Shown here: in pieces, positions 3,991-24,334 of the stretch
Layout of the letters: every line of letters begins with the position of its first letter
Numbering within the stretch: the first letter of the stretch is position 1
Assembly (NCBI RefSeq): GCF_900112415.1
Contig: NZ_FOLV01000039.1
Span: forward strand, 1-35,151
Length of the DNA: 35,151 bases
Direction: 5' to 3'
DNA from: Bacillus sp. 491mf
GTDB taxonomy: Bacteria; Bacillota; Bacilli; Bacillales; Bacillaceae_G
Notes under the pieces: generated by a model
What the model was told of the DNA's origin: nothing
Seen by the model: the letters and a program-made list of their open reading frames with translations, nothing else
Databases searched by the model: none
Translations under genes and position numbers: made by a program

Positions 3991-4050
3991 CAGATTTATC
4001 CCGCTATTCGTGGGCAGTAAGACCCCCACTGATGGAAGTTTCACTTTATG
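3991..4050. repeat. dispersed intergenic repeat (full-length-looking copy)
   Basis: It contains CCCGCTATTCGTGGGCAGTA then AGACCCCCACTGATGG then AAGTTTCACTTTA. The same blocks recur, in whole or in part and in either orientation, at 1109-1146, 7253-7277, 23788-23815, 27796-27824 and 35021-35105. Both GC-rich blocks can pair locally. It resembles the short repeats scattered through B. cereus-group genomes. Confidence 0.6.
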
Positions 4051-4140
4051 AGACTGTTTTGTTATTTTCACTTTATTTATGTAATAACTATATTTTTGTG
4101 GATAAACTGAAGTTTCATTTGAAAAGAAATAAAAAAACAT

Positions 4141-4236
4141 CGTTCCAAACATAAACCCTATAGCCTAATCGGGACTTAAGCGATCCTTGCATATAATTTT
4201 AAATTTCTCTAAATCCTCTTCTTTTATTTTTGTCAT
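4141..4236 (-). pseudogene. N-terminal remnant of the multi-TM candidate-immunity family
   Basis: From an ATG at 4236 the frame reads MTKIKEEDLEKF then CKDRLSPD, then TAG (4165-4167), then AIGFMFGT. This matches the N-terminus of the intact gene at 4521-5297 (IKEEDLDEF, CKDRLSPEG, GLMFGG). Nothing of the rest of the gene follows, so it is a broken N-terminal fragment with an in-frame stop. Confidence 0.7.
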
Positions 4237-4520: not shown

Positions 4521-5297
4521 CTATGCCTTCCGTTTCGATTTACTTTTTTTATTTTTCTTTTGGTATCTTGGAGTTTCTCTTTTATGTTGCTCCCACGATG
4601 TGTTAAATGACGGAAATTTAAACCTACAATAAACTAATAACTGAAATTCCGCTGCCCCGATGGCTATGGCATACATTAAAATAGTCCCTACCACATACAG
4701 AACTACAGTATCCAACCCATAATCATTATGAAAATAAATCAAAATTAGAAGAATTAGTGCGTATATTATAGCCCACTTCATCATAGTTCCTTTTGTGTTA
4801 CTAAAAAATGAAGCAGATCTTTCATCCATACTAAACGCACCTTCACTCGCTTGTTTAAACGTATCAATCGTTGTCACAATATGAACAATCACTGCTCCTA
4901 AAAATAATAAACCCGCATACATTATTGTAATCTGGTCAATTGATTTATTAGCTATTTTAGTAACAATCAAAGCTGTGAGTCCTATTGTTGCCATTTGGAA
5001 TGCATATAATAATACGCCAAGTGTTTGTAACTTTTGAAATTTAAATTGAGCTTTCGGAAATGAATATAAAATTAAAAGGATTATTTGTAAGCTATATAAT
5101 AACACTTCTAACTTAACAACTCCTATATCAAAGAGAAGCATACAGTAATCCCAACCACTTGGTAAAACAATAGAAAAAATGATTATTGAACTATATAGTA
5201 TTCCTCCAAACATCAAACCCATAACACCTTCAGGGCTTAAACGATCTTTACATGTCATTCTAAATTCATCTAAATCTTCTTCTTTTATATTCCACAT
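4521..5297 (-). CDS. multi-TM membrane protein, candidate orphan T7SS immunity protein (copy 1)
   Basis: A 258-aa protein with about six hydrophobic segments (residues near 25-47, 60-80, 95-115, 123-143, 170-190, 198-220). It opens with a short acidic N-terminus (IKEEDLDEF) and ends with YCRFKFPSFNTSWEQHKRE and a Lys/Arg-rich tail. It is a clear paralog of 10509-11246, which sits directly behind the LXG toxin gene, and of three decayed copies here. AAAGGTG lies 8-9 nt before the start. I do not recognise a named family. The role is inferred only from the paralog's position: membrane-embedded immunity to a membrane-acting T7SS toxin. Having no toxin beside it, it would be an orphan immunity gene. 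Confidence 0.75.
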   Translation of the reverse strand: MWNIKEEDLDEFRMTCKDRLSPEGVMGLMFGGILYSSIIIFSIVLPSGWDYCMLLFDIGVVKLEVLLYSLQIILLILYSFPKAQFKFQKLQTLGVLLYAFQMATIGLTALIVTKIANKSIDQITIMYAGLLFLGAVIVHIVTTIDTFKQASEGAFSMDERSASFFSNTKGTMMKWAIIYALILLILIYFHNDYGLDTVVLYVVGTILMYAIAIGAAEFQLLVYCRFKFPSFNTSWEQHKRETPRYQKKNKKSKSKRKA

Positions 5298-5565: not shown

Positions 5566-5850
5566 TTATATGGTAATATTCTCCTTTACATAATAGTATA
5601 CTTCATCTTTTCCTAAAGCTGGTTCGTTACTTACATACTTGATGTTGAAAATGCTTTGGTCGTTTAAAGCCACTGCGTTACGATATGTTATTAAATCAAT
5701 TACTTCTGGCATCCTTGGAATTGTCTTTGAATGCTCTCCTTGCCATGATTCCTTAAAGTTTGCTGGATATACGTCTTGTAGGAATATTCTCTCTGGAAGC
5801 GGTGGTAACCATGGTCTTGGCAACGCATGTGTAGAAAGTTTTTTAGCCAC
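5566..5850 (-). pseudogene. essC remnant (internal-deletion fragment)
   Basis: A 94-codon frame whose residues 8-39 (ALPRPWLPPLPERIFLQD then PANFKESW) match the intact EssC just before its second ATPase domain (about residues 967-998). At DNA level about 31 consecutive bases are identical (5784-5814 region against 15224-15254). The frame then jumps to KTIPRMPEVIDL, which resembles EssC KAIPMVPEILEY just before the third ATPase domain. The second ATPase domain is therefore deleted. The last 45 residues are only loosely EssC-like. No Walker motif survives, so it cannot be functional. It shows that a second essC 3' region once lay here. Confidence 0.8.
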
Positions 5851-6102: not shown

Positions 6103-7143
6103 CTATTGAATAAATGCGTTCAATAGTATATTTCCATACTCGTCACTAATACGCCATTGATTTCCCTCATGTTTCTTCATACCAATTGTTATAGTCTCTT
6201 CAGTATTCGAAGTTTTTGTCTCAGATAATATTGACATTTCATAATCAAATAGTTTTTTTCTTAATTCGAAATATTCAATGTTTGGATTTTCACCTAAAAT
6301 CCTATTTTTTTCACTATCAACCTTTGAATGCATCTCACTTATCATGAGTGGCTTCACTTTTAACTCTACCTCTGTTGTCTTTCTGTCAGCAGATACAGCT
6401 ACAGCCTTTGCTTCAAATTTAGTATTCTTCTGCACTGCTTTCCTCAAATTTTTATAATAATTTTCAAATTGTTGTTCATCAATGTCATAATAAATGCCTA
6501 GCATTGAAATAGTTTTAAAGTTCTTTTTTACCTTACCCGCATATTGTTGACCATCTTCACCTGATAATTTCTTAAGTTTTTCAGCATCCTTATCATAAAA
6601 AGTAGTATTTATATAAGCACTTAACGCTTCAGCTGGTTTATCTAAATCTTTTGCTTTCTTTGCTAGTTCTTTTCCATCAATTTTAAAAGTAATTTTCTCT
6701 TCTTCTTCCTCATCTGGATCTTGGCGACCTTTTTTATAAACCAGTTCATATGAAGAAGCATCTTTTGCGTCAAAATATAATGACCCTGACACTTTTTTTT
6801 CTTTATCCACTTCGTCAGATCGTAATGAATCATCATCGCTTGAAGAATATTCTTTCATTTCTTCATCTTTTTTATAAAGCTTAAAGTCTTTTTTAGATAT
6901 ATAAAAAGGCTTATCCCCTATATTTTTTAAGTTTACTCTTACTTTAAGAATTTTATCGTTTATGTTTTTACCAAATCTTTCTGGTAAAACATATTCAGCA
7001 CTTTCAAGCTGAAGTTCAACGCTTTTTGTTTTTTCTTTGCCTCCAACTCTAGATCCCGTTACCTGTGACGAACCACATCCACTTACAATACCAATTGTAA
7101 GAAGTGATGCAAAACCAACCATTATAACTTTTTTTAATTTCAC
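6103..7143 (-). CDS. putative lipoprotein (DUF4352/DUF5105-like)
   Basis: A 346-aa protein with a basic N-terminus, a hydrophobic stretch and lipobox IVSGC (Cys23), so it should be lipid-anchored outside the membrane. Residues about 45-150 form an immunoglobulin-like region with VRVNLKNIGDKPFYIS, typical of DUF4352-type domains, with a charged loop (DEEEEEK near residue 145). The C-terminal part (about 170-340) is a mixed alpha/beta domain resembling the Bacillus DUF5105 lipoproteins. The family name is from memory and function is unknown. AAGGGGAAGG-type ribosome-site sequence precedes the ATG. It is intact in the middle of a decayed T7SS region, flanked by remnants on both sides, so it may be an arrival or a surviving cargo gene. 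Confidence 0.75.
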   Translation of the reverse strand: MKLKKVIMVGFASLLTIGIVSGCGSSQVTGSRVGGKEKTKSVELQLESAEYVLPERFGKNINDKILKVRVNLKNIGDKPFYISKKDFKLYKKDEEMKEYSSSDDDSLRSDEVDKEKKVSGSLYFDAKDASSYELVYKKGRQDPDEEEEEKITFKIDGKELAKKAKDLDKPAEALSAYINTTFYDKDAEKLKKLSGEDGQQYAGKVKKNFKTISMLGIYYDIDEQQFENYYKNLRKAVQKNTKFEAKAVAVSADRKTTEVELKVKPLMISEMHSKVDSEKNRILGENPNIEYFELRKKLFDYEMSILSETKTSNTEETITIGMKKHEGNQWRISDEYGNILLNAFIQ

Positions 7144-7291: not shown

Positions 7292-7378
7292 CTATCTCTT
7301 GATCAGTGGACTTTTCACATCAACATATTGCAAGCCCTCATCACCACTAAATATATAGTAAATCGTAAAAATCATCCC
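7292..7378 (-). pseudogene. C-terminal remnant of a DUF5085-like gene
   Basis: The minus-strand frame reads IYYIFSGDEGLQYVDVKSP and stops at 7292-7294. The intact protein at 9468-9914 ends IYHIFSGDESLQYVDLK plus seven residues. DNA identity is obvious over CATCACCACTAAATATAT. Nothing upstream of about 7378 matches, so only the last 28 codons remain. Confidence 0.7.
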
Positions 7379-7415
7379 AACATATATATATAAATCCAAA
7401 TTAAAAACTTGACAT

Positions 7416-7651: not shown

Positions 7652-7861
7652 AACACTAAATATGCTGATAATGACGAGATTAAAAGAAATACACTAGCTC
7701 CTATACTCTCGTATGTTTTAAAGAAAATAGGAGCAACTATTACTCCTTTTCACGGTAGTGATTTACAAACTGTCATTAACTGTATATGTAATCTATTTGG
7801 ATTTTTAGGATGTAAAACTTATTTTATTTCTTTGACTTTTTCCTTTTCCTTCTCTTTATAA
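7652..7861 (+). other. unidentified 69-codon open stretch without a start codon
   Basis: A plus-strand frame with protein-like composition: YADNDEIKRNTLAPILS, then GATITPFHGSDLQTVIN, ending at TAA 7859-7861. There is no suitable ATG and no ribosome site. It looks like a displaced gene fragment. I do not recognise the parent protein. The end overlaps the tail of the multi-TM pseudogene on the other strand. Confidence 0.35.
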
Positions 7862-8513
7862 CGCTTTATGAATTCCTGACGTTCTATTTCATGTTTTTCC
7901 CATGAAATAGAAAATGATAGGAATTTAAACCTGCAATAGGCTAATAATTGAAACTCAGCTGCACCTGTGGTTGCCGTGTACATTATTAGAGTCCGCCCGC
8001 ATACAATCCTAAAATCTTTGGCATATAATCATTATGCACATAAATTAAAGTGAGAAGAGTTAACGCATACATTACAGCACACTTAGTTGCATTCGCCTTT
8101 GTTTTATTAAAAAATAAAGACGCACTAAATGCCCCTTACTTACCTTTCTAAAGGTATCAATAGTCGCTACAATATGAACAATGACTGCTCCTAATAATAA
8201 TAATAAACCTGCATACATTAATGTAGTTTGGTCAATTGAATTATTAGCCATTTCAGAAACAATTAACAGTGTGAATAATATTGTTGATTGTTGGAATGCA
8301 TATAATAACACGACAAGCGTTTGTAATTTTTGAAATTTAAAACGAGCCTTTGGAAATAAATATAAAACTAAAAATAGAATTTGAAGGCTATATAACACAA
8401 TTTCAATCTTAAAAATTGTTCTAACAAAAAAAGTGGTATAGTAATCCCAACCTCCTACCATAAACCCTGTAGCACCTTCAGGACTTAAACGATGTTTACT
8501 GTATAGAGATACT
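7819..8513 (-). pseudogene. multi-TM candidate-immunity family, broken copy (copy 2)
   Basis: It starts without an initiation codon as SKHRLSPEGATGFM. It then lacks the first membrane segment (MVGG joins directly to WDYY, where copy 1 has GGILYSS through LPSGWDY) and continues as a good match through IDTFRKVSKG near 8150. There it shifts frame, resumes as MYALTLLTLIYVHNDY-like sequence, and ends YCRFKFLSFSISWEKHE with a lysine-rich tail and a stop at 7819-7821. An N-terminal truncation, an internal deletion and a frameshift make it non-functional. It is closest to the intact gene at 4521-5297. Confidence 0.8.
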
Positions 8514-8541
8514 AAAGCTCTTTAATTTTATTTTCAGAAAG

Positions 8542-8679: not shown

Positions 8680-9288
8680 TTAATCTGCTTTCGTATACTC
8701 TTCTCTAGGGTCTAAGTGTACTTTACCCTTGTATATAATGACTTTAAACTTGTCTTTCATTTTTGCCTTATCAAACACTTCTTGTTTGACTGGAATTGAT
8801 TCATACTTTCCGTTTACTAGAATATCTAACTCATTTCTTGGGAATACATAATAATATGTTCTTTCTAACTTAAAGACTACGGTAGCTTCCTTTTGTTTCC
8901 CGTTTTTAATTAAGTTATCTTCTTGCCATCCTTCGATTATGCCCGTTATAGCAATGAAGAGAAAGAAACAAGCGATTCCAATAAAGATACGTTTTCTAGT
9001 CTTTTTCTTTTCTTCTTCACTCTTAGGCTTCGTTTCATCAATCTGTGAGTTAACCTGTGCTAAGATTTCTTTTATTTCTTCTATCTCTTCTTTTACTTCT
9101 TCTAGTTCTTCTTCATCTAACACCATGTCATAAATCTCGACATTGTCTTCTATCCCACCGAAATGCAAAGACTTACGTTTGTTTTCTTCCATTTCTTGCA
9201 ACTCTTCTTTTTCTAACTCAAACTTGTAATGAACATTGCCTTCTTTGTCTACTATTCGAATGATAACGAATTCTTCTTTCTCCAACAT
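8680..9288 (-). CDS. single-pass membrane protein with acidic coiled coil, unknown function
   Basis: A 202-aa protein in three parts. An N-terminal region of about 55 residues has a beta-like start (EEFVIIRIVDKEGNVHYKFE). A very acidic coiled coil follows (residues about 57-100, EEELEEVKEEIEEIKEI). A membrane helix lies at about 106-124 (IFIGIACFFLFIAITGII), then an 80-residue C-terminal domain that probably lies outside (YYYVFPRNELDILVNGKYES). AGAGGGG lies 11 nt before the ATG. It is the last gene before the hairpin at 8542-8582, in line with the DUF5085-like pair and the LXG gene, so it is probably part of the effector module. I do not recognise a family. It could be an accessory immunity or membrane adaptor protein. 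Confidence 0.75.
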   Translation of the reverse strand: MLEKEEFVIIRIVDKEGNVHYKFELEKEELQEMEENKRKSLHFGGIEDNVEIYDMVLDEEELEEVKEEIEEIKEILAQVNSQIDETKPKSEEEKKKTRKRIFIGIACFFLFIAITGIIEGWQEDNLIKNGKQKEATVVFKLERTYYYVFPRNELDILVNGKYESIPVKQEVFDKAKMKDKFKVIIYKGKVHLDPREEYTKAD

Positions 9289-9467: not shown

Positions 9468-9914
9468 TTATCCTTGAATATCTACTGCAATTTTCAAATC
9501 AACATACTGTAGGCTTTCATCACCACTAAATATATGATAGATTGGTGAAACCATATCAAGTTGATTATCTTCCATGTACTGAAACATCTCAGCATACGCA
9601 TACTCTGTTAATTTTTCAAAATCTCCTGCGTATCTTTTCATTAGCATGTTATCAACGTAATAATAACTTTGAAACTTCATTGTTTCCGATTTAGGAATAC
9701 TACTCTCATGTACTGGCATAAATAATTCAATAAACATATCTCCATCTGAGGGCACATTTTTCAACGCATAAAACATTGGACCTTTGATTGTTAAATTCGC
9801 TTGCGCAATTTCTTTCAATAAATCTTCTATCGCTTTTTCCATATCAGTATAGTGAAAGAAATATTCTCTCGAAACAACATTTGTATAAGCAATACTTTGT
9901 TCTTCAATCATCAT
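9468..9914 (-). CDS. DUF5085-like protein (second of a tandem pair)
   Basis: A 148-aa soluble alpha/beta protein of the type annotated DUF5085 in Bacillus, probably with a GyrI-like effector-binding fold. It ends IYHIFSGDESLQYVDLKIAVD. Its start overlaps the stop of the preceding paralog by four bases (ATGA), showing translational coupling. It lies in the effector module behind the LXG toxin and the 6-TM gene. A broken copy of its last 28 codons lies at 7292-7378, so this gene type travelled with the decayed module too. The biochemical role is not established; chaperone or immunity accessory is an inference from position. Confidence 0.75.
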   Translation of the reverse strand: MMIEEQSIAYTNVVSREYFFHYTDMEKAIEDLLKEIAQANLTIKGPMFYALKNVPSDGDMFIELFMPVHESSIPKSETMKFQSYYYVDNMLMKRYAGDFEKLTEYAYAEMFQYMEDNQLDMVSPIYHIFSGDESLQYVDLKIAVDIQG

Positions 9915-10372
9915 CGCGCCAATTCACCTACTTCAATAATAGGAGCATAAATATCCAACCACATATCACCATACACATCTAAGCATACATGGTAAAATCT
10001 ACCATCTAATTTCATATGATTTTGTTCAGCAAACTCATTTAAAACACGATAAGCGTCTTCAATATCGCCATCTTCATCTGAAAATCTAACACAAAGCGCT
10101 TCTTCAATAACAATAGCGTCAATATACTCATACGGTGAACCCTCTTTCATATTCACTCGTCCATTTACTGGAACGCAATACATATATTCACCATATTCCG
10201 GTTCATTCTCTAATGGTGAATATGTAAAAAGAACTGGTCCTATTGGATATATATCATTATGAACTACTTGATTTCTAAGCGCGATAGCTGGTAACAACCA
10301 ATCGTCTTTTTTTACAATTTGAGTGATACTAATTAAATTTAGCATTGACAATGCTTTATAGTGAACTTTCAT
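9911..10372 (-). CDS. DUF5085-like protein (first of a tandem pair)
   Basis: A 153-aa soluble protein. Residues 1-90 (MKVHYKALSMLNLISITQIV, then IGPVLFTYSPLENEPEYGEY) and the C-terminal half (FYHVCLDVYGDMWLDIYAPI) share the layout of the following protein: a two-lobed fold with a GPVLF/GPMFY strand and a final IELF/LDIYAP strand. It overlaps the next gene by four bases. About 136 bp separate it from the 6-TM gene upstream on the transcript, with no convincing terminator in between. The family is assigned from memory of DUF5085 proteins; function is unknown. Confidence 0.75.
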   Translation of the reverse strand: MKVHYKALSMLNLISITQIVKKDDWLLPAIALRNQVVHNDIYPIGPVLFTYSPLENEPEYGEYMYCVPVNGRVNMKEGSPYEYIDAIVIEEALCVRFSDEDGDIEDAYRVLNEFAEQNHMKLDGRFYHVCLDVYGDMWLDIYAPIIEVGELAR

Positions 10373-10427: not shown

Positions 10428-10615
10428 AGTTTACGATTATCATTTATAAATCTCATTTCATTTTTTGTTTCGCTTTTGTTCTTCTTTTCTTCTATTTGCT
10501 ATAAATTCTTAATATTCCTTTTTATGTTGCTCCCATGTGATATTAAATGATGGAAATTTGAACCGACAATACGCCAATAGGACGAATTCTGAAGATTTAA
10601 TAGCAACTGCATATA
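10428..10615. repeat. long repeat shared with 4319-4512
   Basis: About 190 bp covering the last 36 codons of the 6-TM gene and 80 bp beyond its stop are almost identical to 4319-4512 in the same orientation. This shows duplication of gene end plus flank about 6 kb apart. Direct repeats of this length could support recombination that deletes or exchanges the DNA between them. Confidence 0.75.
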
Positions 10616-11246
10616 ATATGAATGTCTGCAAGGTATACAATACCATTGGTTTTAACACAAAATTAATACTTACAAAAATCAAAATTAAAAGCACTATTAC
10701 ATAAGTAACCATTCCAATCAACACACGTGAGTTTGAATTAGTAAAAAATGAGATAGCCTCACCTTCCAATCTATCCCCTCCATGTTTGACCTTTCTAAAG
10801 ATATCAACTGTGGCTACAATATGCATAGCTATAGCTCCTAATAATAATAAACTAAGATACACCAACGTGTTGTTATTATAAGGAAAACCAAACATATCTC
10901 TAATGACTAAAGCCATAAATGGTAATGTACACAATTGGATTGAGAAAAATAAAATAACAATTGTTTGGAACTTTTGTAATTTAAAAGCAACCTTTGGAAA
11001 CATGTATATAATAAGGAAAATGAACTCTAAGATATACAACTTTGCCTCAGTTCGTACAACTATTTTCTCAAAAAGACTTAAAGAAATCTTATCACCATTC
11101 AGCAAAACACCTAAAAACATGATCAACATTGGTATAGAAGTATATGCAAAAACTCCCCCCAAAAAAAATCTTATTTTATCGGGGCGTAACCGTTTTCCAT
11201 TTATATCCTTTAAAAAGTCTAAATCTTCTTCTTTTATATTTCTCAT
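10509..11246 (-). CDS. 6-TM membrane protein, candidate immunity protein for the LXG toxin (copy 3)
   Basis: A 245-aa integral membrane protein with about six hydrophobic segments (residues near 27-47, 62-80, 88-112, 118-140, 168-188, 195-222). The N-terminus is IKEEDLDFLKD and the C-terminus is YCRFKFPSFNITWEQHKKE; both ends are conserved in all copies. It starts 31 bp after the LXG gene stops, with AGTAGGA 6-7 nt before the ATG, so it is cotranscribed. In T7SSb loci the gene right after an LXG toxin is usually the immunity gene, and membrane-depolarising toxins (TspA, TelE) are blocked by integral membrane proteins (TsaI, TipE). That makes immunity the best inference. It does not look like DUF443 to me. 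A G6/T8 run lies in codons 28-32. Confidence 0.8.
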   Translation of the reverse strand: MRNIKEEDLDFLKDINGKRLRPDKIRFFLGGVFAYTSIPMLIMFLGVLLNGDKISLSLFEKIVVRTEAKLYILEFIFLIIYMFPKVAFKLQKFQTIVILFFSIQLCTLPFMALVIRDMFGFPYNNNTLVYLSLLLLGAIAMHIVATVDIFRKVKHGGDRLEGEAISFFTNSNSRVLIGMVTYVIVLLILIFVSINFVLKPMVLYTLQTFILYAVAIKSSEFVLLAYCRFKFPSFNITWEQHKKEY

Positions 11247-11277
11247 TCATTTATCCTACTTTCTAATGTTATACAAA

Positions 11278-12852
11278 TTACCAAAATATTGATTTCAATT
11301 TTTTAAGAGCCGCTTTCCCATTGTCCACTGTTGAGTTTGCCATTTTCATAACTTCTTTATAATTCCCAACCCTTACATTATCATAAAAATCTGCCCCCCA
11401 TTTTACCAATTTCTTTGTTCCGCTAACCACACTTTCCCCACCAAGCATATCAGATTTCGTATTCACTAGTATCGAACCAACTACACCTACCGCTGTTCCT
11501 ATCGCTGCTCCTGCTACTGTTCCAAGTGGCCCCAAAGCAGTCCCAATTACCGCTCCAGTTGCTGTTGCTCCAGCTGCAAACGCAAAGTCAACACCTGTAT
11601 CTAATACAACATCCCTTACATCCTGTAGTTGGAATCCATTGGCTTGTGACTTCACAACATTATCTACGACTGTAAGCGCCGTTCCAGCTATTGCTACACT
11701 CTTAAAGATTGTGCCAGTAGTTTTGAGGTCTTTGAATGTTTCTGGCCATTTCTTATAATTAAGATCGGTAAAATTTTTTAAAAATTCAGTTTTAAACGAA
11801 CCTTTCCATTTGTCCCCGAGTGTTTTTAACACCCCTTCTTCCGCACTAGTCATCCTAAAGTCTTGCAACGCTTCAAATTCAGGTAATTTATAAATATCTT
11901 TTTTCGCCTGTGCTATTGCAGTTCTTGTTACTTCTCCATAATCAATTTTAAATTTATCTTGAAAAATAAATTTAATAATAGCATCTTCATTTTCATCTAC
12001 GGTTAAAAGCTTCAAAATTTTTACCATATCACTCTGCTTGAGGGTTTTCAATATATGTGCTCCTTGTCCTTCTAGAGCGTTAATATCAAATTCAGAACGG
12101 AATCCAAGGATTCGTTCCATATAACCCATACGTAACGCTACAGAAAAGAAACTCATTACAAGTTTTTTCCCCTTACCAGTCCATCCCGCAGTTTTTTTTA
12201 GCGAAGCGACAATACCTGCAAACCATCCCTCAGGTAAAATTTTCTCTGCCGCACCAATAGAGAAATCTCCACCATTGGCTTGGACTCGATTCATTCCATC
12301 ATCTAGCTCACGCATCATTCCATCAAAATCTTGTAGATCCTGTTGTTGACTGTTATACGCCTCTAATTTTTCTAATGTATCACTGATTTCTTTTTGGCTA
12401 TTTACAGCCCCTTCCGTAATCCCTGATGATGATGGATATTGAATTGGTACAATGTCACTAATCGTCCCCACTGTTTGTTGCGCTTCTTCATTAGAATGAT
12501 TAAATGCTTCACTATATCCATTAACTTTTTTCTTTACCTCATCTAAATAACTACCATAAATTTTCACATCTCCATCACTGTCGACTGAACTATTAAAATC
12601 TTCAATCGCTTTTTGAAATTGAAGATTTAGCCCTTCCGCTATAACCATAAATGCAGAGATGATACCTCCTCCGTGAACTGTAGATAAATGCTTTTTAATT
12701 CCATCAGCTGTTTTCCCTTGAAAAGAGTTAATTTCCGTAAAATCACCTATTTTTTGTATTAAAGATTCCAGGTATTGATTCAACTCATTTGTACTTGCTT
12801 GAAATCTACTTTGAAGCTCTTTTACTTCCTGTAACTCAATATTTTTATCCAT
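11278..12852 (-). CDS. LXG-domain T7SS effector with glycine-zipper C-terminus (putative membrane-acting toxin)
   Basis: A 524-aa protein. Residues 1-200 form a helical LXG domain (ELQSRFQASTNELNQYLESL, then SFQGKTADGIKKHL, HGGGIISAFM), the export domain of T7SSb polymorphic toxins. The middle (about 200-400) is helical with no enzyme motif that I recognise. Residues about 424-466 are Gly/Ala-rich with small residues at regular spacing (GAVIGTALGPLG, GAAIGTAVGVVG), a glycine zipper as in the membrane toxins TspA and TelE. The last 58 residues are hydrophilic and basic. No nuclease, ADP-ribosyltransferase, NADase or lipase signature is visible. GGGGGGAG lies 4 nt before the ATG. Two helical partner genes precede it and the 6-TM candidate immunity gene follows. 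The toxin mechanism is inferred. Confidence 0.85.
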   Translation of the reverse strand: MDKNIELQEVKELQSRFQASTNELNQYLESLIQKIGDFTEINSFQGKTADGIKKHLSTVHGGGIISAFMVIAEGLNLQFQKAIEDFNSSVDSDGDVKIYGSYLDEVKKKVNGYSEAFNHSNEEAQQTVGTISDIVPIQYPSSSGITEGAVNSQKEISDTLEKLEAYNSQQQDLQDFDGMMRELDDGMNRVQANGGDFSIGAAEKILPEGWFAGIVASLKKTAGWTGKGKKLVMSFFSVALRMGYMERILGFRSEFDINALEGQGAHILKTLKQSDMVKILKLLTVDENEDAIIKFIFQDKFKIDYGEVTRTAIAQAKKDIYKLPEFEALQDFRMTSAEEGVLKTLGDKWKGSFKTEFLKNFTDLNYKKWPETFKDLKTTGTIFKSVAIAGTALTVVDNVVKSQANGFQLQDVRDVVLDTGVDFAFAAGATATGAVIGTALGPLGTVAGAAIGTAVGVVGSILVNTKSDMLGGESVVSGTKKLVKWGADFYDNVRVGNYKEVMKMANSTVDNGKAALKKLKSIFW

Positions 12853-12874: not shown

Positions 12875-13171
12875 TTACATATTATGATGAGCTGAACTGA
12901 TTCTCAATTGTCTTTCAAGTTGTTCATCTTGTTCAACCATTTTTTCTCCAGCTCGTTGAATTTTATTTAAATCATTTTCTAAAAGAGTCTCATACTGTTG
13001 CACCTTTTGAGATAACTTTTCTATCGCTTCACAATATTTAGTTAATCTATCCAAGTTGGTACGAGTCAACTTCATATCATTAAACTTTGTTTTCCCTACA
13101 TCACTCGCACCACTTTTTAGTTCACTTACTTTCGAATCAAAGACGGCTTTATTTAACTTAATTTCGCCCAT
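12875..13171 (-). CDS. LXG-associated small helical protein (YwqI/DUF5344-like, TIGR04197-type)
   Basis: A 98-aa all-helical protein with no Trp. It has a conserved-looking start (GEIKLNKAVFDSKVSEL) and two long amphipathic helices (residues about 10-25 and 45-90). It is of the size and position of the YwqI/DUF5344 partners encoded just before LXG toxins (Lap-type proteins), which bind the LXG domain and carry it to the T7SS. Its ATG overlaps the previous stop by one base (TAATG) with AAGGAG upstream, and it ends 22 bp before the LXG gene. The exact family label (DUF5344 or TIGR04197) is not certain. Confidence 0.8.
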   Translation of the reverse strand: MGEIKLNKAVFDSKVSELKSGASDVGKTKFNDMKLTRTNLDRLTKYCEAIEKLSQKVQQYETLLENDLNKIQRAGEKMVEQDEQLERQLRISSAHHNM

Positions 13172-13596
13172 TATCCATTCTCCTTCTTCTGTTTTTCAAC
13201 TTGAATATTATCGTTCACAATTGAAACACTTTTATTTAATGAAGAAATCGCTGATTCACATGAAGAAATTTGTCCATCAATTTTTTGAATCTCATGTTCA
13301 ATATCTTCTTTTACTCTATCTAACTCGCTTATAAATCTTCCTAAATTAGAGAGGACTTGTTCTTGATAGGTGGACTTGAAAGTAGTTGCTCTTTGTCCTT
13401 TCCACATACCATCATTAATTTCTAGTGATTTAAATTGTTGCTCGTTTTGCCGAATGGATTCAATATTATTTCCAAATTGTCCTTTTGCTTGTACTAATCG
13501 TTGTTTTTTTAGCTGCAGAGCCGCTAAATGGCTCTGCTGCTGACTAATGCTACTAAGTAAATTTGCTTTCTGACTATCAAGTTGCGATAATTCCAT
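13171..13596 (-). CDS. LXG-associated helical protein (YwqH/DUF5082-like) with WxG-type turn
   Basis: A 141-aa helical hairpin. A coiled coil covers residues 1-50 (QLDSQKANLLSSISQQQSHL), a central turn MWKGQRA at about 63-69 recalls the WXG100 turn, and a second coiled coil runs 75-135. It matches the YwqH/DUF5082 type, the first of the two helical partners of LXG effectors. It starts inside the essC stop (TAATG, one shared base) with AGGGGGGA 6 nt upstream, so it is translationally coupled to essC. It should form a complex with the 98-aa protein and the LXG domain. Confidence 0.8.
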   Translation of the reverse strand: MELSQLDSQKANLLSSISQQQSHLAALQLKKQRLVQAKGQFGNNIESIRQNEQQFKSLEINDGMWKGQRATTFKSTYQEQVLSNLGRFISELDRVKEDIEHEIQKIDGQISSCESAISSLNKSVSIVNDNIQVEKQKKENG

Positions 13597-16500
13597 TAAT
13601 ATCCCCCCTGAATAGTTGGTACCTTAATTTTTGTCGCATATCTATCTTTTATAAAGTATCCTTCAAAAGGATTTAACTTCGTACTACTTGAATCCTTATT
13701 GGATACATCAAACGCCATTTGTCCAGATGATTTTCTTAACAAAATAATGTGCGATTGTGTTTTGACTGCTTTTGAAGCTGAATCGTAGCGGCTATCAATC
13801 GCATCGACATCACAACCAATGACAAAATGGATTCCCATATATGCACCATTCGTAATCAATTCTGCTAAGCGATATGTTTCACTATCTTCTACACTACTAA
13901 CAACATCATTTAAGTCTGCGATGACGATAACAATTGGCTTGAACTTTTTAACATAGTCTGCTGGATTTATCGTGTCATTTGAAGCTTCTTGCTCTTCTTT
14001 AAATGCAGCTTCCCTTGATCTATAAGCACCTTCGATTTGCTGAATCGTTTTTTCTATTCCTGCTTTGTCAGCTACATATAAGGCTGTTTTGCCCTTAAAG
14101 TTTGAGAATGTTTGTGCTCTTGAATCTACAAGACCTACATCAAATCCCTGACTTTCAAGTAATTGGTGAGTAAATTGATAAATCATATTTTCAATTTGGT
14201 CTTTTTTTATTCCTGCTACAACAAGGTTTGAAGCTTCTACTAAATCTAATTTCATTGGTGTGACATTCTCAGTTTCAACCCCAAAGGATAGTTTACGAGC
14301 TTCCATAATTTTTCTCGTTTCTGGCCATGCAATAAATTCTTTATATTCCAAGATCTCTGGTACCATCGGAATGGCTTTTGGTTTTGAACCAGTCCAAAAC
14401 TCGTTCATATCTCGCCCTTCAGCTTGTATATGCTCAATTACACCGAGCACATCTTCTCCTTCTGTTGGCATACAAGTTTGGAACACTGTCGGGTCTTCGA
14501 TTTTTATTAGACCGCGACCAAATACTTCTTCGATTTTCAAATCAGTACGGCCTACGATTGCTCTAGGTTCTGTATCATCGATCATATAGAGAGCAATTTG
14601 TGCCTTAATATTCGTATTCACCTGTATTCTCAATGCATTTTGACGCATAGCCGATAATAGTAAATGAATTCCTACCGCGGCACCTTCACGAACGATTTGT
14701 GCAATCAGGCGTTCAAAATTATCAACAAATGCTGCCTCTTTCACTCCATCATAATTATCTAATGTAATGAGTATTGTCGGCAATGTTTCACCACTAGCTC
14801 GTTCATACATTTCAAGATTAGCAACGCCGTATTTGCTTAATAGTCGCTTTCTTTCCTTAAGCGTTTCTTCTATACGACGGATAAATTTCTCGCATTTTTC
14901 TGCTTGATCTAGCGTTATGATATCTGCTACGTGCGGTAGTGTTTTTAATGGCATTAATCCATTTGTTCCAAAATCAAGCAAGTACACATGCAAATGCTCT
15001 GGACTATGCTGACGTACCGCATCCATAACGACTGTTTGTAAGAAAGTTGATTTTCCATATCCTGGACTTGAGTAGACTGCAACGTGACCGTCTTTACTTA
15101 TGTCTAATGTAAGCGGTGTTTGCGCTTGTAGTTCAGGCTGGTCTAGTAAACCAACTGTTGCTTGTAATGGTTTCTTTTCACCTGACCATGCTTCCTTAAA
15201 GTTTACTGGATGTAAGTCTTGCAGGAATATTCTCTCTGGAAGCGGTGGTAACCACGGTCTTGGTAATGCTTCGATTCGGTTTTCTTCTGTGTAATCATGA
15301 ATGTAATTGATAACCGCATCAAGTTCAGTTGGTACAGTTGTGATTTCTGTTTTATCTCCGAGTCCACTCAAGTCCTCACTCAAAATCTCATACTGTCCAA
15401 GCTCATTGATCGCATAAACAGTCGTATCTAGCTGTTCTTGATCATCTTTGTCTTCAATATAATCCGCCCCGCTCCATGCACTTTGGAACAGTTCATAAAT
15501 TTCGTTATTTCCGACTTGTAAGTACGCTCGCCCTGGAAGTGTAATTTCTGCAGCGTCTGGTGTTTTTAAGATTTCATTACTGTCAGATGCATTTTGTACT
15601 TTTAGTGCTAATTTGAATTTGGAGTTACTCCAAATTTGATCATTTACGACCCCGCTCGGTTTTTGCGTTGCTAAGATTAAGTGAATTCCTAGGGAACGAC
15701 CGATACGTGCTGTTGATACTAATTCCTTCATAAAGTCAGGTTGCTCTGCTTTTAATTCCGCAAATTCATCCGAAATTAAGAATAGGTGCGGCATTGCTTC
15801 TGTCACTTTGCCTTGTTTGTATAGTTTTTGATATTGGTTAATATGGTTTACATCGTGTTCGCCAAATAAGCGTTGACGTTTTTGTAATTCTGCTTTAATC
15901 GATGCAAGGGCACGCATACTTTGGGCGCCGTCTAAGTTCGTAATTGTTCCTAATAAATGCGGTAGGTCCTTAAATAAGTTCGCCATTCCCCCGCCCTTAT
16001 AGTCAATAAGTAGGAATGCTACTTCATACGGATGGAAGTTCACCGCAAGGGATAAAATGTACGATTGAATAATTTCTGATTTACCAGATCCTGTTGTACC
16101 TGCGACTAATCCGTGTGGTCCGTGCGCTTTTTCATGTAAGTTCAAGTTGACGATGTCATCTTTACCGCGTAAGCCGAGCGGTACAGCTAAGCTCTTAAAT
16201 GTTTCATTTTTCGCCCAGCGTCCCTTAATGTTTAATTCGTGAACTTTTTCAACACCGTACATTTCAAGGAATGTAACACTTTCTGGAATACTGTTTCTTA
16301 AGTTTTGCAAGTGATTCAGCGGTGCTAATGCACGAGAGATATCTTCTTTGTTGAAGCCATCTGGGAAGTGATCAAGCGTAAAGTGGCGATTTACTAATTC
16401 CCCTTTTTCTAACATGATGTTCCCGTTTTTCGCATCGCGAATATCTATAACTGTTTTTACGTGTTCTGGTAAACTTTGCATCACATCTTCTACAAAGATG

Positions 16501-18113
16501 AGAGATACACCAAGTTCGCTTGGGTCTTCATTAAAGAATTCCATTACACTATGATCTAAAATTAGTTTTTCATCTGTAATCAATACAACGTAATGAGGTG
16601 CAAAATACACTTTTTCTTTGGAGTTGCCTTTCTCTTCCACAGCTAACTTACGTTCTTTCAAAATTTGATACAAACTGTTCAATACTTGATCTCGGCTTCG
16701 GTCATGATAAACGAACCCGCGAACATTAATATCTCGTAAACTCGCATGCGGTAACCAACGCATCCAATCCCAGCTTGCTTTTTCTTCTTCTGGGAAAATC
16801 GTAATGAATTGTAAGTCATAATAACTATGAAACAGAGCTGTCTGCATAACGAGCATTTGCAGCTGTTCGATTACCAATTTTCGTTGTCCAATATAACCTA
16901 CTGGGCCGTTTACTAAGTCGGTCACAACCGGTACATTCTTTAAACCCTCATATTGCGAACGTAGGTCTTTTGCAGCTTCTACTAATTCATCTTTGTTTTG
17001 CGTAAACTCTTCTTCGCTAAACTTAATCTCAAAACTAGAATCAACACGCCCGAGTCCAACGCGATATGTTAAGAAGTCATGGTGTAACATTGTTTTTTCA
17101 TAGACTTGAGAATCTACTCTTACTGCCATATCACGAATTTGTTCAATGTTTGGATAGTGATAATCCAGAGCGTGCCTTTGTTCTTCACTTGCAGCATACA
17201 ATTCTTGTGTTTTCTGCTTCAAATAATTTTGATAACTTTCGTTCCGCTCTTTCGTCTCAATTCTGTATTTCTTTAAATTCTTTAAATACGTGGTTAATGA
17301 AATAATTACCGTTACCACTGTCATCCCTAGTGAAGCGAGAATAAAAATTCCGCGCGGCTGAAAAATTGCAATGACTACAGTCAACACAATCATCACAATC
17401 GGCGGCACGATCATCTGCGCCAGTTGTTCACTTGGTTTTGACGGCAAATGAGATGGTTTTCCAATCGTTAGCTTTTCCTCTGGCTCACGGTAAATAATCC
17501 GCGGGGAACGATGATAATTTGGATATTCTTCCCCAAAATCATTATCAGCTTCGATTAAAGGTGTTAATTTTGTTGTAATGCGATTAGATGAAGCCAATAT
17601 TTGAATATCTTCTTTTCCAACTTTAATTGTTACACCGTCAAAATAAAGCTGGTCACCTGCCTCAAGCATTTCCTCACCAGTCATACGGAAAAAGTTGTGA
17701 TATACATAGCCGTCATTCACAATGACTTTAAAACAATCCCCTAATGTTTCACGGATGAACAGCAAGCTAGCTTTCATGTTCTTGATTATTACGTCATCGC
17801 GATCCGTTGCGCCAAACGAAATACTATATTTGGACGCTGTATCATACACATACTCTTCTTCTGCATCCGTCAAGTAAAAGTGCATTTGTTTTTCATTAGT
17901 GATATCTACTGTCACATGTTCATTTACATGTAAGGCTTCATTCTCAAGATTCCATACTTCGCCATCCCATTTCACCACTACACGCGTTTCTAAGTCCGTG
18001 TAAGTAACGGTATCGGACCATTCATTTCCGATTGTGACTAATTCACGTTTTTTCGGATTAAGATGACATTTATGCAGTTGATTGCCGTAACTAATTGTTA
18101 GTAGTTGTACCAT
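13596..18113 (-). CDS. essC: EssC/YukBA, T7SSb FtsK/SpoIIIE-type ATPase
   Basis: The 1505-aa motor and substrate receptor of the Ess system. N-terminal FHA-like domains lie at about 1-170, and two membrane helices at about 238-275 (IVMIVLTVVIAIFQ, LASLGMTVVTVIISL). Three cytoplasmic ATPase domains follow. D1 has Walker A GTTGSGKSE near residue 671 and Walker B LFLISDEF near 778. D2 has SSPGYGKST near 1019 and ILITLDNYD near 1120. D3 is degenerate, VVAGIKKDQ near 1299 with IVIVIADLND. Only D1 and D2 look nucleotide-competent. Length matches S. aureus EssC (about 1480). GGGAGATAG precedes the ATG; essB ends 40 bp upstream. The C-terminus is where EssC variants select effector modules, and it directly adjoins the LXG module here. 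Confidence 0.97.
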   Translation of the reverse strand: MVQLLTISYGNQLHKCHLNPKKRELVTIGNEWSDTVTYTDLETRVVVKWDGEVWNLENEALHVNEHVTVDITNEKQMHFYLTDAEEEYVYDTASKYSISFGATDRDDVIIKNMKASLLFIRETLGDCFKVIVNDGYVYHNFFRMTGEEMLEAGDQLYFDGVTIKVGKEDIQILASSNRITTKLTPLIEADNDFGEEYPNYHRSPRIIYREPEEKLTIGKPSHLPSKPSEQLAQMIVPPIVMIVLTVVIAIFQPRGIFILASLGMTVVTVIISLTTYLKNLKKYRIETKERNESYQNYLKQKTQELYAASEEQRHALDYHYPNIEQIRDMAVRVDSQVYEKTMLHHDFLTYRVGLGRVDSSFEIKFSEEEFTQNKDELVEAAKDLRSQYEGLKNVPVVTDLVNGPVGYIGQRKLVIEQLQMLVMQTALFHSYYDLQFITIFPEEEKASWDWMRWLPHASLRDINVRGFVYHDRSRDQVLNSLYQILKERKLAVEEKGNSKEKVYFAPHYVVLITDEKLILDHSVMEFFNEDPSELGVSLIFVEDVMQSLPEHVKTVIDIRDAKNGNIMLEKGELVNRHFTLDHFPDGFNKEDISRALAPLNHLQNLRNSIPESVTFLEMYGVEKVHELNIKGRWAKNETFKSLAVPLGLRGKDDIVNLNLHEKAHGPHGLVAGTTGSGKSEIIQSYILSLAVNFHPYEVAFLLIDYKGGGMANLFKDLPHLLGTITNLDGAQSMRALASIKAELQKRQRLFGEHDVNHINQYQKLYKQGKVTEAMPHLFLISDEFAELKAEQPDFMKELVSTARIGRSLGIHLILATQKPSGVVNDQIWSNSKFKLALKVQNASDSNEILKTPDAAEITLPGRAYLQVGNNEIYELFQSAWSGADYIEDKDDQEQLDTTVYAINELGQYEILSEDLSGLGDKTEITTVPTELDAVINYIHDYTEENRIEALPRPWLPPLPERIFLQDLHPVNFKEAWSGEKKPLQATVGLLDQPELQAQTPLTLDISKDGHVAVYSSPGYGKSTFLQTVVMDAVRQHSPEHLHVYLLDFGTNGLMPLKTLPHVADIITLDQAEKCEKFIRRIEETLKERKRLLSKYGVANLEMYERASGETLPTILITLDNYDGVKEAAFVDNFERLIAQIVREGAAVGIHLLLSAMRQNALRIQVNTNIKAQIALYMIDDTEPRAIVGRTDLKIEEVFGRGLIKIEDPTVFQTCMPTEGEDVLGVIEHIQAEGRDMNEFWTGSKPKAIPMVPEILEYKEFIAWPETRKIMEARKLSFGVETENVTPMKLDLVEASNLVVAGIKKDQIENMIYQFTHQLLESQGFDVGLVDSRAQTFSNFKGKTALYVADKAGIEKTIQQIEGAYRSREAAFKEEQEASNDTINPADYVKKFKPIVIVIADLNDVVSSVEDSETYRLAELITNGAYMGIHFVIGCDVDAIDSRYDSASKAVKTQSHIILLRKSSGQMAFDVSNKDSSSTKLNPFEGYFIKDRYATKIKVPTIQGGY

Positions 18114-18153: not shown

Positions 18154-19362
18154 TTAGTTTGCTTTATTTCCTGATGGATTTTTATTTGATAAGTCACCTG
18201 AGGAATCCGTATTGTATTTCTTTTGGTAATCTTCCAACTCTTTTTGATATTTTTGTACTTTTTCTTCACGCGCCGAACCAGTTAATTTCGGATTGTTTTT
18301 CACTTGTTCGATTTGTTTAATTAACCCGTACATAATCAATTGCGGGTCATCTATATATTTCGCAAGATCTAAAGATTTAGAGAAATCTCCGCGCCCGTTG
18401 TAGATCCAATATAGTAAATAACTTTTATCACTTTTTAGACTCACATTCTTCATAATTGCTGCTTTTTGATCATCTGTTAATTTTTCTGCTTTCACGTATG
18501 AAGAAGCTAAAACATATTTAGAGGCATCTGGTAATTTCTCAGGATCTTGTTCCTTTAAAGTGCTAATTACTTTATCGTAGTCTGTCGCTAAGAAATTTTT
18601 ATCTGCTTCTAACAATTTATTTTGATACGGCATTTTTACAAAGCTGAAATAGCCAAGCGGTACAGCAAGAACAACAGAAGCAACAATCATCGAAATAGAT
18701 AATCGTTTAAATAAACGGAATCGTTTTTTCGGCACAAGTTGCATATTTTTCTCTGTAGTCGTTTGTTCTCTTCTGTACTGATCATTTAACAACTTTACAA
18801 GGTCATCAAATGTACTAACATCAACAACACTACGATCAAACGCTGTATCCTTCGCATTTTCCAATGAACCAGAATACAACTCATCAAAACTATATTTCTT
18901 CGAGAATAGCGCAACAACTAAACATTTATACTGGCGTAAAAATTTTGCATCATCTAAGCGATATGGTGGTACGATATCACGAATACCACGATAAACAAGA
19001 TATGGCATATAATTGTCATCGAATACGATATTGTCTGGATGAAGAAAGAAAGTTTTTCGAGTTTGTAAACACTCTTGAAAGCGGGCAACGTTAAGCAATA
19101 GTCGCAGTTTATCGTTTTTACCTAGTTTTTGTACATCTTGCCATTCTCTTGTTTGTTCCTTAACGTTGAACTCAAATGTAAACATATCTTCATGATCTTC
19201 TACTGTAGCCGGTACAAAGAAATTAGATTTTTCCGTAATTAACTCCAATTGCCGTATATCCTTCACACGCGTCTGCGATTTTGATAACTTCAATTTCCGT
19301 ACATGCTCAGTCGTTTCAAACAGATAATTCATCGAATCTAGCTGAATCGTTCTTTCTGTCAT
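18154..19362 (-). CDS. essB: EssB/YukC, T7SSb membrane pseudokinase subunit
   Basis: 402 aa. The cytoplasmic pseudokinase-fold domain spans about residues 1-210 (HPDNIVFDDNYMPYLVYRG resembles a kinase catalytic-loop region without active residues). One membrane helix lies at about 220-242 (SISMIVASVVLAVPLGYF), after a basic stretch. A helical outer domain (about 245-380) with TPR-like pairs follows, then a Ser/Asn-rich tail (SSGDLSNKNPSGNK). This is the EssB architecture; EssB contacts EssC and forms the membrane complex. The start codon overlaps the stop of the 69-aa gene by four bases (ATGA), and GAGGAG lies upstream. Confidence 0.95.
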   Translation of the reverse strand: MTERTIQLDSMNYLFETTEHVRKLKLSKSQTRVKDIRQLELITEKSNFFVPATVEDHEDMFTFEFNVKEQTREWQDVQKLGKNDKLRLLLNVARFQECLQTRKTFFLHPDNIVFDDNYMPYLVYRGIRDIVPPYRLDDAKFLRQYKCLVVALFSKKYSFDELYSGSLENAKDTAFDRSVVDVSTFDDLVKLLNDQYRREQTTTEKNMQLVPKKRFRLFKRLSISMIVASVVLAVPLGYFSFVKMPYQNKLLEADKNFLATDYDKVISTLKEQDPEKLPDASKYVLASSYVKAEKLTDDQKAAIMKNVSLKSDKSYLLYWIYNGRGDFSKSLDLAKYIDDPQLIMYGLIKQIEQVKNNPKLTGSAREEKVQKYQKELEDYQKKYNTDSSGDLSNKNPSGNKAN

Positions 19363-19576: not shown

Positions 19577-19828
19577 CTATAAAACTTTCAATATATCCCC
19601 GTCCGTTACTTGATAATCACCCAACCGATCATCATCAGTTAATAACAGTTCTTTATTAACAACCTTAACAGCGCAGCGCGAAACTTCCATCACATCAAGC
19701 TTCAACGCCTCAGCAATATTCATAAGTAGCTGCTTGATGGGCTGATGGGTAGGGATGCGCAGATCGTATAATCTGCCATTCCCTTTATTAAAGTCAATGG
19801 TGACATTAATATGTGTTTGTCCTGCCAT
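19577..19828 (-). CDS. esaB: EsaB/YukD, ubiquitin-like T7SS protein
   Basis: 83 aa. It has a beta-grasp ubiquitin-like pattern: a first strand INVTIDF, a second strand YDLRIP, a helix IKQLLMNIAEAL, and an ending YQVTDGDILKVL, matching YukD/EsaB in length and motif order. It is cytoplasmic and lacks the C-terminal diglycine of conjugated ubiquitins. It is needed for or regulates T7SS activity in other Firmicutes. It lies 13 bp after essA, with GGAGAAG-type ribosome-site bases before the ATG. Confidence 0.93.
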   Translation of the reverse strand: MAGQTHINVTIDFNKGNGRLYDLRIPTHQPIKQLLMNIAEALKLDVMEVSRCAVKVVNKELLLTDDDRLGDYQVTDGDILKVL

Positions 19829-24037: not shown

Positions 24038-24334
24038 TTAGCTAAGTCCAAAATTACGAGATAAATCTTCATCATGTCGAGCCACAGCATCTGCTGTATC
24101 TTTCAATTGTCTTTCGATGTCATGTAGTAATTGGGCAAAGTTTTTTACCTTTGGTGCTAAGTCGATAAATTGTCGGTCAAAGCCTTCAAATGCACGACCT
24201 TCCCATTCTCCGCGTAAGTCGCTTTGTAAGCGTGTTAAATCATTTAGAATGTCCTCAATTTGATTACCACCATTACCATAACGAGCTGCTTTTGATTTCA
24301 GCTCCTCTGGGCTCATACGAATTTGTCCAGCCAT
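24038..24334 (-). CDS. esxA: EsxA/YukE, WXG100 substrate of the T7SS
   Basis: A 98-aa helical hairpin with the WXG turn as W44-E-G46 (GEWEGRAF). It has a typical start, AGQIRMSPEELKSKAARYG, and a C-terminal helix ending VARHDEDLSRNFGLS. The length and motif are those of EsxA/YukE, the secreted core component that also activates EssC. AGGAGG (complement of 24342-24347) lies 7 nt before the ATG. Unlike the rest of the locus it ends at its own terminator, which fits a short, abundant transcript. Confidence 0.97.
   Translation of the reverse strand: MAGQIRMSPEELKSKAARYGNGGNQIEDILNDLTRLQSDLRGEWEGRAFEGFDRQFIDLAPKVKNFAQLLHDIERQLKDTADAVARHDEDLSRNFGLS

What the first reader, a model, noticed from the sequence alone, without database searches (positions are those of the whole stretch)
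10509..12852. LXG effector with a glycine zipper next to a 6-TM protein: candidate membrane-acting toxin-immunity pair
The LXG protein has no enzyme signature. Instead it has a Gly/Ala zipper at residues 424-466. The next gene, 31 bp on, encodes a 6-TM protein. Known T7SS membrane toxins (TspA in S. aureus, TelE in S. gallolyticus) combine a glycine-zipper C-terminus with an integral membrane immunity protein. This immunity candidate does not look like DUF443 (TsaI) to me, so it may be a separate immunity family.
Basis: partly seen in the sequence, partly recalled or inferred. Interest (0 to 1): 0.75.

Follow-up and report, generated by a model that had tools for sequence, protein, structure and literature searches.

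The report
Membrane-puncturing bacterial toxin with two-layer immunity
This stretch most likely encodes a secreted protein that damages rival bacteria's membranes, together with two different kinds of self-protection, one for inside the cell and one in the membrane; the layout matches toxin loci described in Staphylococcus and Streptococcus, but the membrane protection belongs to an unnamed, rapidly varying family.

Summary
In detail: an LXG protein (11278-12852) with a glycine zipper beyond chance, no enzyme domain above any cut-off, and a six-helix membrane protein 31 bp downstream (10509-11246). The reading is half right. In published work DUF5085 proteins (TipE; ExiB of ExiAB) neutralise such toxins inside the producer; TelE's immunity protein is soluble, not integral membrane as claimed. 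Six-TM proteins (ExiC with ExiD) protect against toxin arriving from outside. I infer the same division here. Listeria and Enterococcus loci share the gene order; one carries a displaced toxin C-terminus with its own 6-TM gene. Intact 6-TM genes also stand where DUF5085 genes are decayed (L001) or not found (L005). The 6-TM family has no Pfam/NCBIfam match above cut-off (DUF443, DUF5079, DUF5080 not hit); predicted cytoplasmic loops are conserved, outer loops vary. Its kinship is good to Listeria, fair to one Enterococcus locus, unproven to the other. Nothing was tested experimentally. New variant of a known kind.

The parts
11278..12852 (-). LXG toxin, 524 aa; LXG domain residues 3-191, C-terminal toxin region
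   Evidence: PF04740 E 4.6e-20; residues 354-461 homologous to the Listeria LXG C-terminus, blastp E 3e-12, and without the zipper (354-423) E 2.8e-10
11455..11583 (-). glycine zipper hairpin, residues 424-466 (GxxxGxxxG-PL-GxxxGxxxGxxxG)
   Evidence: shuffle tests; local alignment to the EsxX zipper peptide printed in PMC12744356 scores 74, 0 of 2000 segment shuffles reach it
10509..11246 (-). 6-TM membrane protein (type A), candidate immunity protein against toxin from outside
   Evidence: six hydropathy peaks; a membrane protein in the same slot in Listeria and two Enterococcus loci; no Pfam/NCBIfam family above cut-off
9911..10372 (-). DUF5085-type protein A (ExiA position), 153 aa
   Evidence: PF16895 E 4.2e-6, below the gathering cut-off (27.7 vs 30 bits); blastp E 1.6e-22 to Listeria copy A
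9468..9914 (-). DUF5085 protein B (ExiB/TipE position), 148 aa; overlaps A by 4 bp
   Evidence: PF16895 E 1.5e-57; blastp E 6e-23 to Listeria B, 2.5e-29 to E. faecalis B
12875..13171 (-). DUF5344 small helical protein (Lap3-like)
   Evidence: PF17279 E 2.3e-11; TIGR04197 E 1.7e-15
13171..13596 (-). YwqH-like small helical protein (DUF5082/Lap4-like)
   Evidence: PF16888 E 3.1e-16; that YwqH-like equals DUF5082 is recalled
13596..18113 (-). EssC secretion ATPase, 1505 aa
   Evidence: PF01580, PF12538; 60% to Listeria EssC
18154..19362 (-). YukC/EssB
   Evidence: PF10140 E 1.2e-130
19577..19828 (-). YukD
   Evidence: PF08817 E 1e-13
24038..24334 (-). WXG100 (EsxA-like) protein
   Evidence: PF06013 E 3.3e-21
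4521..5297 (-). second intact 6-TM paralogue (type B), 258 aa, 41% identical to type A
7822..8521 (-). broken 6-TM copy, spread over three reading-frame pieces
   Evidence: HMM hits E 2.6e-50, 3.6e-19, 1.2e-9
4015..4236 (-). fragment of a further 6-TM copy
   Evidence: tblastn E 5e-10
7313..7381 (-). fragment of a DUF5085 B gene (23 aa, 65% identity)
   Evidence: tblastn E 7.5e-6
5734..5802 (-). essC remnant (23 aa, 78% identity to EssC 957-979)
   Evidence: tblastn E 1.6e-5

Best explanation
The module encodes a T7SSb-secreted antibacterial toxin whose C-terminal glycine-zipper hairpin inserts into a rival's cytoplasmic membrane, oligomerises and depolarises it. The two small helical proteins (DUF5082, DUF5344) dock on the LXG domain for export. 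Self-protection has two layers. A soluble DUF5085 pair (9911-10372, 9468-9914) holds the zipper in the cytoplasm before export. The 6-TM protein (10509-11246) sits in the membrane and blocks toxin arriving from outside. Orphan and tandem 6-TM copies then protect against variant toxins of neighbours. Shown here: gene order, homologies, zipper, six hydropathy peaks, duplicated and decayed copies. Inferred from published EsxX and TelE experiments: membrane insertion, depolarisation, export, both immunity roles.
For: Gene order and sizes match the EsxX locus (DUF5344 98, DUF5082 134, EsxX 517, DUF5079 228, DUF5085 149, DUF5085 149 aa; PMC6834553 passage; PMC12744356); window in order: 141, 98, 524, 245, 153, 148 aa, the two small helical genes being swapped. 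The zipper aligns with the EsxX zipper. The same order of LXG, membrane protein, DUF5085 A, B lies in Listeria L003 and Enterococcus L004 and L006; these loci were found with DUF5085 B as query, so its presence there is no independent support, but the LXG and membrane genes beside it are. DUF5085 A and B fall on two sides of one split (100/99). In L006 a displaced toxin C-terminus (3392-3796) is followed by its own 6-TM gene (3793-4476), with one DUF5085 pair in the 7 kb read. Intact 6-TM genes without intact DUF5085: five in tandem in L001, which has only a stop-containing DUF5085 A fragment, and one in L005, where DUF5085 and LXG queries find nothing.
Against: No function was tested. ExiC or ExiD alone did not protect; both were needed, and the only partner candidate here is a second copy of the same family 5.2 kb away. 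Gallo_0563 did not protect E. coli from TelE. Homology of the window 6-TM protein to the Enterococcus ones is weak: L006 copy c E 2.2e-6; L004 copy E 0.028, and in the earlier test its best-domain score (9.5 bits) did not beat the best shuffled decoy (10.2); L006 copies a and b are not found by the nine-sequence HMM. L001 ends at the contig edge, so a toxin beyond it is not excluded. AlphaFold of the toxin failed (pLDDT 38.7); the 6-TM model is mediocre (pLDDT 66).
Confidence: 0.75

Rival explanations
1. One reading: a zipper toxin neutralised by the 6-TM protein alone, as TspA with TsaI; the DUF5085 genes do something else.
For: The 6-TM gene is directly downstream (31 bp); in L006 a displaced toxin C-terminus travels with a 6-TM gene and no DUF5085 of its own; L005 carries a lone 6-TM gene.
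Against: DUF5085 proteins neutralise zipper toxins in two published systems. An A/B pair follows the 6-TM gene(s) in 4 of 4 LXG loci read here (window, L003, L004 with a split LXG gene, L006), though three of these were found by searching with DUF5085 B.
Confidence: 0.13
2. The 6-TM protein is not an immunity protein but an export or delivery partner of the toxin.
For: Constant place beside the toxin; ExiC alone and Gallo_0563 did not protect in the assays reported.
Against: Intact 6-TM copies without a toxin module in view (L001, L005) and a displaced toxin end with its own 6-TM gene fit immunity genes better than export parts.
Confidence: 0.08
3. Residues 200-390 hold an unrecognised enzyme and the zipper is only a translocation segment that carries it into the target cell.
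For: The stretch is unassigned and could not be modelled.
Against: No enzyme hit above cut-off in Pfam, NCBIfam or PDB sequence searches, with single sequence or three-sequence profile; in blastp with composition adjustment the similarity to the Listeria toxin outside the LXG domain is confined to 354-461, the zipper and the 70 residues before it.
Confidence: 0.06

Closest known systems
EsxX with LapX3/X4, ExiA, ExiB, ExiC, ExiD (S. aureus ST398, essC2)
   Same: essC-small helical pair-LXG zipper toxin-6-TM-DUF5085-DUF5085 layout, near-equal protein sizes, similar zipper with a GP-containing turn, membrane-immunity genes also found without the soluble pair
   Different: Order of the two small helical genes reversed; 6-TM protein not hit by DUF5079 or DUF5080; no DUF5080 (ExiD) gene recognised among the downstream proteins scanned, but paralogues of the same 6-TM family lie further downstream
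TelE/TipE (Streptococcus gallolyticus)
   Same: LXG toxin with C-terminal glycine zipper, six-pass protein next to it, DUF5085 immunity protein as the second of two
   Different: Direct sequence comparison not made (sequences not held here)
TspA/TsaI (DUF443, S. aureus)
   Same: LXG membrane-depolarising toxin with a membrane immunity protein
   Different: 6-TM protein not hit by DUF443; window has the soluble DUF5085 pair, TspA has a single membrane immunity protein (PMC12744356)
Listeria LXG toxins of variable region 1 (essC5-7) with orphan immunity genes
   Same: L003 carries the same module; PMC10327511 reports that the predicted immunity gene of an essC5 LXG toxin also occurs in essC1-4 strains (passages), which the L005 6-TM gene resembles
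   Different: I could not verify that their gene is this 6-TM gene or which essC type L003 and L005 are

Membership tests
LXG toxins (PF04740) | N-terminal LXG domain | tested here: met
   E 4.6e-20, residues 3-191
EsxX/TelE-type zipper toxins | C-terminal extended glycine zipper without a recognised enzyme domain | tested here: met
EsxX/TelE-type zipper toxins | DUF5085 protein(s) encoded downstream | tested here: met
   PF16895 E 1.5e-57 (B) and 4.2e-6, below cut-off (A)
EsxX/TelE-type zipper toxins | membrane depolarisation or destabilisation; zipper glycines essential (shown for TelE) | not testable with these tools
   needs bench work
EsxX/TelE-type zipper toxins | full-length sequence homology to EsxX or TelE | tested here: inconclusive
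   only the 29-residue EsxX peptide printed in PMC12744356 was compared (score 74, 0 of 2000 shuffles); full sequences were not held
EsxX-type targeting complex | FxG in the LXG domain and FxxxD in Lap3 | tested here: inconclusive
   FQG at 44-46 of the LXG protein; no strict FxxxD in either small protein; an MxxxD at 78-82 of the DUF5344 protein, read directly
DUF443 (TsaI) | match to the DUF443 Pfam profile | tested here: not met
   not among hits at E up to 10 for 7 of 7 family members; HMMER filters limit weak hits
ExiC/ExiD (DUF5079/DUF5080) | match to DUF5079 or DUF5080 profile | tested here: not met
   not among hits at E up to 10 for the 7 members, L003 and L004 copies and three L006 copies; no profile-profile test was possible
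ExiC/ExiD | six TM helices, slot between toxin and DUF5085 pair, copies without toxin | tested here: met
   hydropathy only for TM count; the L004 protein shows eight peaks
ExiC/ExiD | two unlike 6-TM proteins needed together | not testable with these tools
   paralogues of one family are present; pairing untested

The most novel reading that the evidence does not exclude
The 6-TM proteins are an unnamed family of outer-face immunity proteins shared by the window's host, Listeria and Enterococcus. They recognise the zipper hairpin itself: the zipper is the polymorphic, swappable part of the toxin, the variable outer loops (and TM helices) of the 6-TM protein are the matching specificity surface, and tandem arrays act as a library against many zipper variants, while one conserved DUF5085 pair handles the toxin inside the cell.
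Probability: 0.35. Interest if true: 0.65.

Novelty: new variant of a known kind. Interest (0 to 1): 0.45.

Why it matters
It suggests that the two-compartment immunity described for EsxX in 2025 is a general arrangement of Bacillota zipper toxins and not a staphylococcal peculiarity. It gives the membrane layer an unnamed protein family, and the tandem arrays and the displaced toxin end provide natural material to ask how a membrane protein recognises one channel-forming hairpin and not another.

Tried and rejected
Whole-genome routes failed: no genome is held for the window; two genome contigs pattern scans, with the 6-TM protein and with the EssC C-terminus, found no relative. These scans need short near-exact matches, so the absence means little. 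The window and P0001 6-TM proteins have no match in plasmids and the window one none in phages; window 4000-24500 has no near DNA match in plasmids; viral scans with the LXG protein, DUF5085 B and the two-LXG alignment found nothing, those with 6-TM alignments one contig. The organism was not identified. AlphaFold of toxin residues 195-524 from one sequence was useless; Foldseek with the 6-TM model never ran. Weak hits over the zipper stretch, DUF6861 (E 0.0015), Gly-zipper_YMGG (0.3), a sugar isomerase model (0.0079), LeoB (0.001) and two PHROGs (0.003), were rejected as Gly/Ala composition (below the curated cut-off where there is one). PD-T4-6 on the 202-aa protein at 8680-9288 (E 0.00048) was rejected as a likely coiled-coil match. 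The DUF5085 profile found no PDB relative at E up to 1, so the GyrI-like fold rests on PMC12744356 only. No promoter, RNA or composition tool was run.
Full report
What is there. The window's minus strand carries a T7SSb locus: WXG100 protein, YukD, YukC/EssB, EssC, then YwqH-like (DUF5082) and DUF5344 small helical proteins, the LXG protein, the 6-TM protein and two DUF5085-type proteins. The zipper reads GxxxGxxxG, a PL turn, then GxxxGxxxGxxxG (residues 433-456, read directly), with two TM-length hydrophobic peaks either side of the turn. It is beyond chance: 0 of 2000 whole-protein shuffles and 7 of 5000 segment shuffles reach the observed triplet count. No enzyme domain reached a cut-off.

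Directly after the 6-TM gene (136 bp on) lie DUF5085-type A (9911-10372; E 4.2e-6, under the Pfam cut-off) and DUF5085 B (9468-9914; E 1.5e-57), overlapping by 4 bp. The window also holds a second intact 6-TM gene (4521-5297, 41% identical), a broken one (7822-8521), a fragment of another (4015-4236), a DUF5085 B fragment (7313-7381) and an essC remnant (5734-5802).

Literature. PMC12744356 (abstract, introduction, results, discussion, first part of figure legends and tables) shows that EsxX is an LXG toxin with a zipper that depolarises membranes and is toxic from either side; a soluble DUF5085 heterodimer ExiAB (ExiB binding the zipper) protects inside, and two 6-TM proteins ExiC (DUF5079) and ExiD (DUF5080), needed together, protect against toxin from outside; exiCD occur as orphans in antitoxin islands. 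PMC10434224 (passages): TelE is antagonised by the DUF5085 protein TipE; the six-pass protein next to telE did not protect E. coli. So the statement in the finding that TelE has an integral membrane immunity protein is wrong. Sizes in the S. aureus locus (98, 134, 517, 228, 149, 149 aa; PMC6834553 passages) nearly equal those here (141 and 98 swapped, then 524, 245, 153, 148). A local alignment of the printed 29-residue EsxX zipper peptide to the window toxin scores 74; 0 of 2000 shuffles of the window zipper reach it; the same peptide scores 30 against the Listeria toxin and 48 against the L004 piece. Six paper searches were made; among the listed papers I saw none on this module in a Bacillus-like host, but I read passages of only some of them.

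Relatives. A tblastn search with DUF5085 B against 72,556 plasmid-collection records found 3 records and against 50,697 phage records 1. I read three of these four loci; the fourth, LR962679, a second E. faecalis record, was not fetched. L003 (Listeria), also hit by the LXG query: EssC, two small proteins, LXG, 6-TM, DUF5085 A, DUF5085 B, then a frameshifted 6-TM copy. L004 (E. faecalis): LXG in two ORFs, a membrane protein (328 aa, eight hydropathy peaks), A, B. L006 (Enterococcus contig filed as phage): LXG, 6-TM, a stand-alone toxin C-terminus, 6-TM, 6-TM, A, B. Because these loci were found through DUF5085 B, its presence in them is not independent evidence. The LXG C-terminus of the window matches Listeria by blastp at E 3e-12 (354-461), and at E 2.8e-10 without the zipper (354-423); 0 of 2000 shuffles reach either score. 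tblastn with composition adjustment reported only the LXG part of that match. It matches the L004 piece at 8e-4 (391-442), with 0 of 2000 shuffles reaching the score, but L006 only in the LXG domain. DUF5085 A and B of window, L003 and L004 fall on two sides of one split (100/99; six sequences, long branches flagged by the program); L006 A and B match their window counterparts at E 6.7e-8 and 8e-23. Pfam did not recognise the A proteins of L004 and L006 as DUF5085. blastp E-values here are for pairs, not databases.

The 6-TM family. An HMM of 7 window/L001 sequences finds the Listeria copy at E 3e-5, one piece of its second copy at 0.0067 (the other piece 0.36) and the L004 protein at 0.0076 among 498 ORF pieces; over 1000 shuffled decoys of the Listeria protein the best full-sequence score was 5.8 bits against 17.8 for Listeria and 10.4 for L004, but the best single-domain decoy score seen was 10.2, against 17.6 for Listeria and 9.5 for L004. 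Profile-profile comparison with two Listeria copies: probability 92%, E 6e-7 over 221 columns. With Listeria added, one of three L006 copies is found (E 2.2e-6), L004 stays weak (0.028), and L006 copies a and b are linked only through copy c (the three are 28-34% identical to each other). hhalign of the nine-sequence profile against the L006 trio gave probability 66% over 83 columns. So the link is good to Listeria, fair to L006, unproven to L004. No Pfam match above cut-off; DUF443, DUF5079 and DUF5080 do not appear at E up to 10.

Why immunity, and why outside. (a) L006: a displaced toxin C-terminus followed by its own 6-TM gene is a classic sign of a toxin/immunity cassette (recalled principle). 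The two toxin ends agree at 52 of 60 positions in the first three 20-column bins, 13 of 20 in the next, 14 of 40 in the two bins that hold most of the zipper, and 11 of 14 at the end. Fisher p for 52 of 60 against 14 of 40 is 1.2e-7, but the bins were chosen after seeing them, and it rests on one pair of toxins. (b) L001, an IMG/VR contig end, has five 6-TM genes in tandem, the first starting at the contig edge; between the first two sits a stop-containing fragment of DUF5085 A, 84% identical to the window's first 43 residues. The first 6-TM groups with the window's type A (91/100, not starred) and the last with the window's second copy (96/94). The toxin side of that locus is off the contig, so its absence is not shown. 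(c) L005 (Listeria NCTC7974) has one 6-TM gene, 64% identical to L003's, at the end of its T7SS region; none of the 9 annotated proteins between essC and it hits LXG or DUF5085 in Pfam at E up to 0.01, and 8 DUF5085 and 5 LXG queries find nothing in the 12.7 kb at E up to 0.1. Thus, in these two loci, membrane-layer genes are kept where the soluble layer is decayed or not found, as reported for exiCD. (d) Topology by hydropathy and charge: K+R 17-26 in inner loops and tails against 1-6 in outer loops in 12 of 12 proteins (inner parts are also longer). Invariant columns, inner against outer: 24 of 83 vs 3 of 48 (window/L001 seven), 76 of 95 vs 17 of 31 (two Listeria), 22 of 87 vs 0 of 34 (three L006); Fisher p 0.0016, 0.009, 0.0004. 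Columns are not independent, TM helices vary too (in the Listeria pair as much as outer loops), and looser constraint on outer loops would look the same, so this is suggestive only.

What remains open. ExiC and ExiD are two families acting together; here one family occurs in one to five copies per locus. Whether the window's type A (10509) acts alone or with type B (4521) is untested. Whether the family is a diverged DUF5079 cannot be excluded by HMM scan alone. The source organism was not identified: EssC is 60% identical to Listeria EssC, and genes that look like a men cluster (my inference from Pfam hits) lie upstream.

Verdict. Toxin class: confident by homology and layout. Two-layer immunity: likely, by analogy with experiments elsewhere. 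The 6-TM family as a library of zipper-specific outer-face immunity proteins: an attractive, testable extension.

Noticed in passing
L006:3392-3796: Stand-alone toxin C-terminus (134 aa) with its own 6-TM gene, differing from the full toxin mainly in the zipper; the record is filed as an unverified Enterococcus phage but this end holds a bacterial T7SS toxin locus.
   Followed up: partly
L001:1-4293: Five tandem 6-TM paralogues, then a DUF3952 lipoprotein and phage-like genes, on a contig end from IMG/VR; an immunity array beside a prophage.
   Followed up: partly
5560-5850: essC remnant whose ORF continues with a C-terminus that does not match the window's EssC; may be the relic of another EssC variant, as second truncated essC copies are known in Listeria (PMC10327511 passages).
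   Followed up: partly
8680-9288: 202-aa protein with a charged coiled-coil-like N-terminus and one hydrophobic segment (read by eye), no family above cut-off, between the DUF5085 genes and the 6-TM relics.
   Followed up: no
6103-7143: Lipoprotein-like protein with DUF4352 and DUF5105 domains between the 6-TM copies; L001 has a different lipoprotein (DUF3952) after its 6-TM array.
   Followed up: no
26-3892: Two surface proteins with SpaA-type domains, one with a thioester domain and one with an LPXTG-type anchor, and a sortase at 25220-25987 on the other side of the T7SS locus.
   Followed up: no
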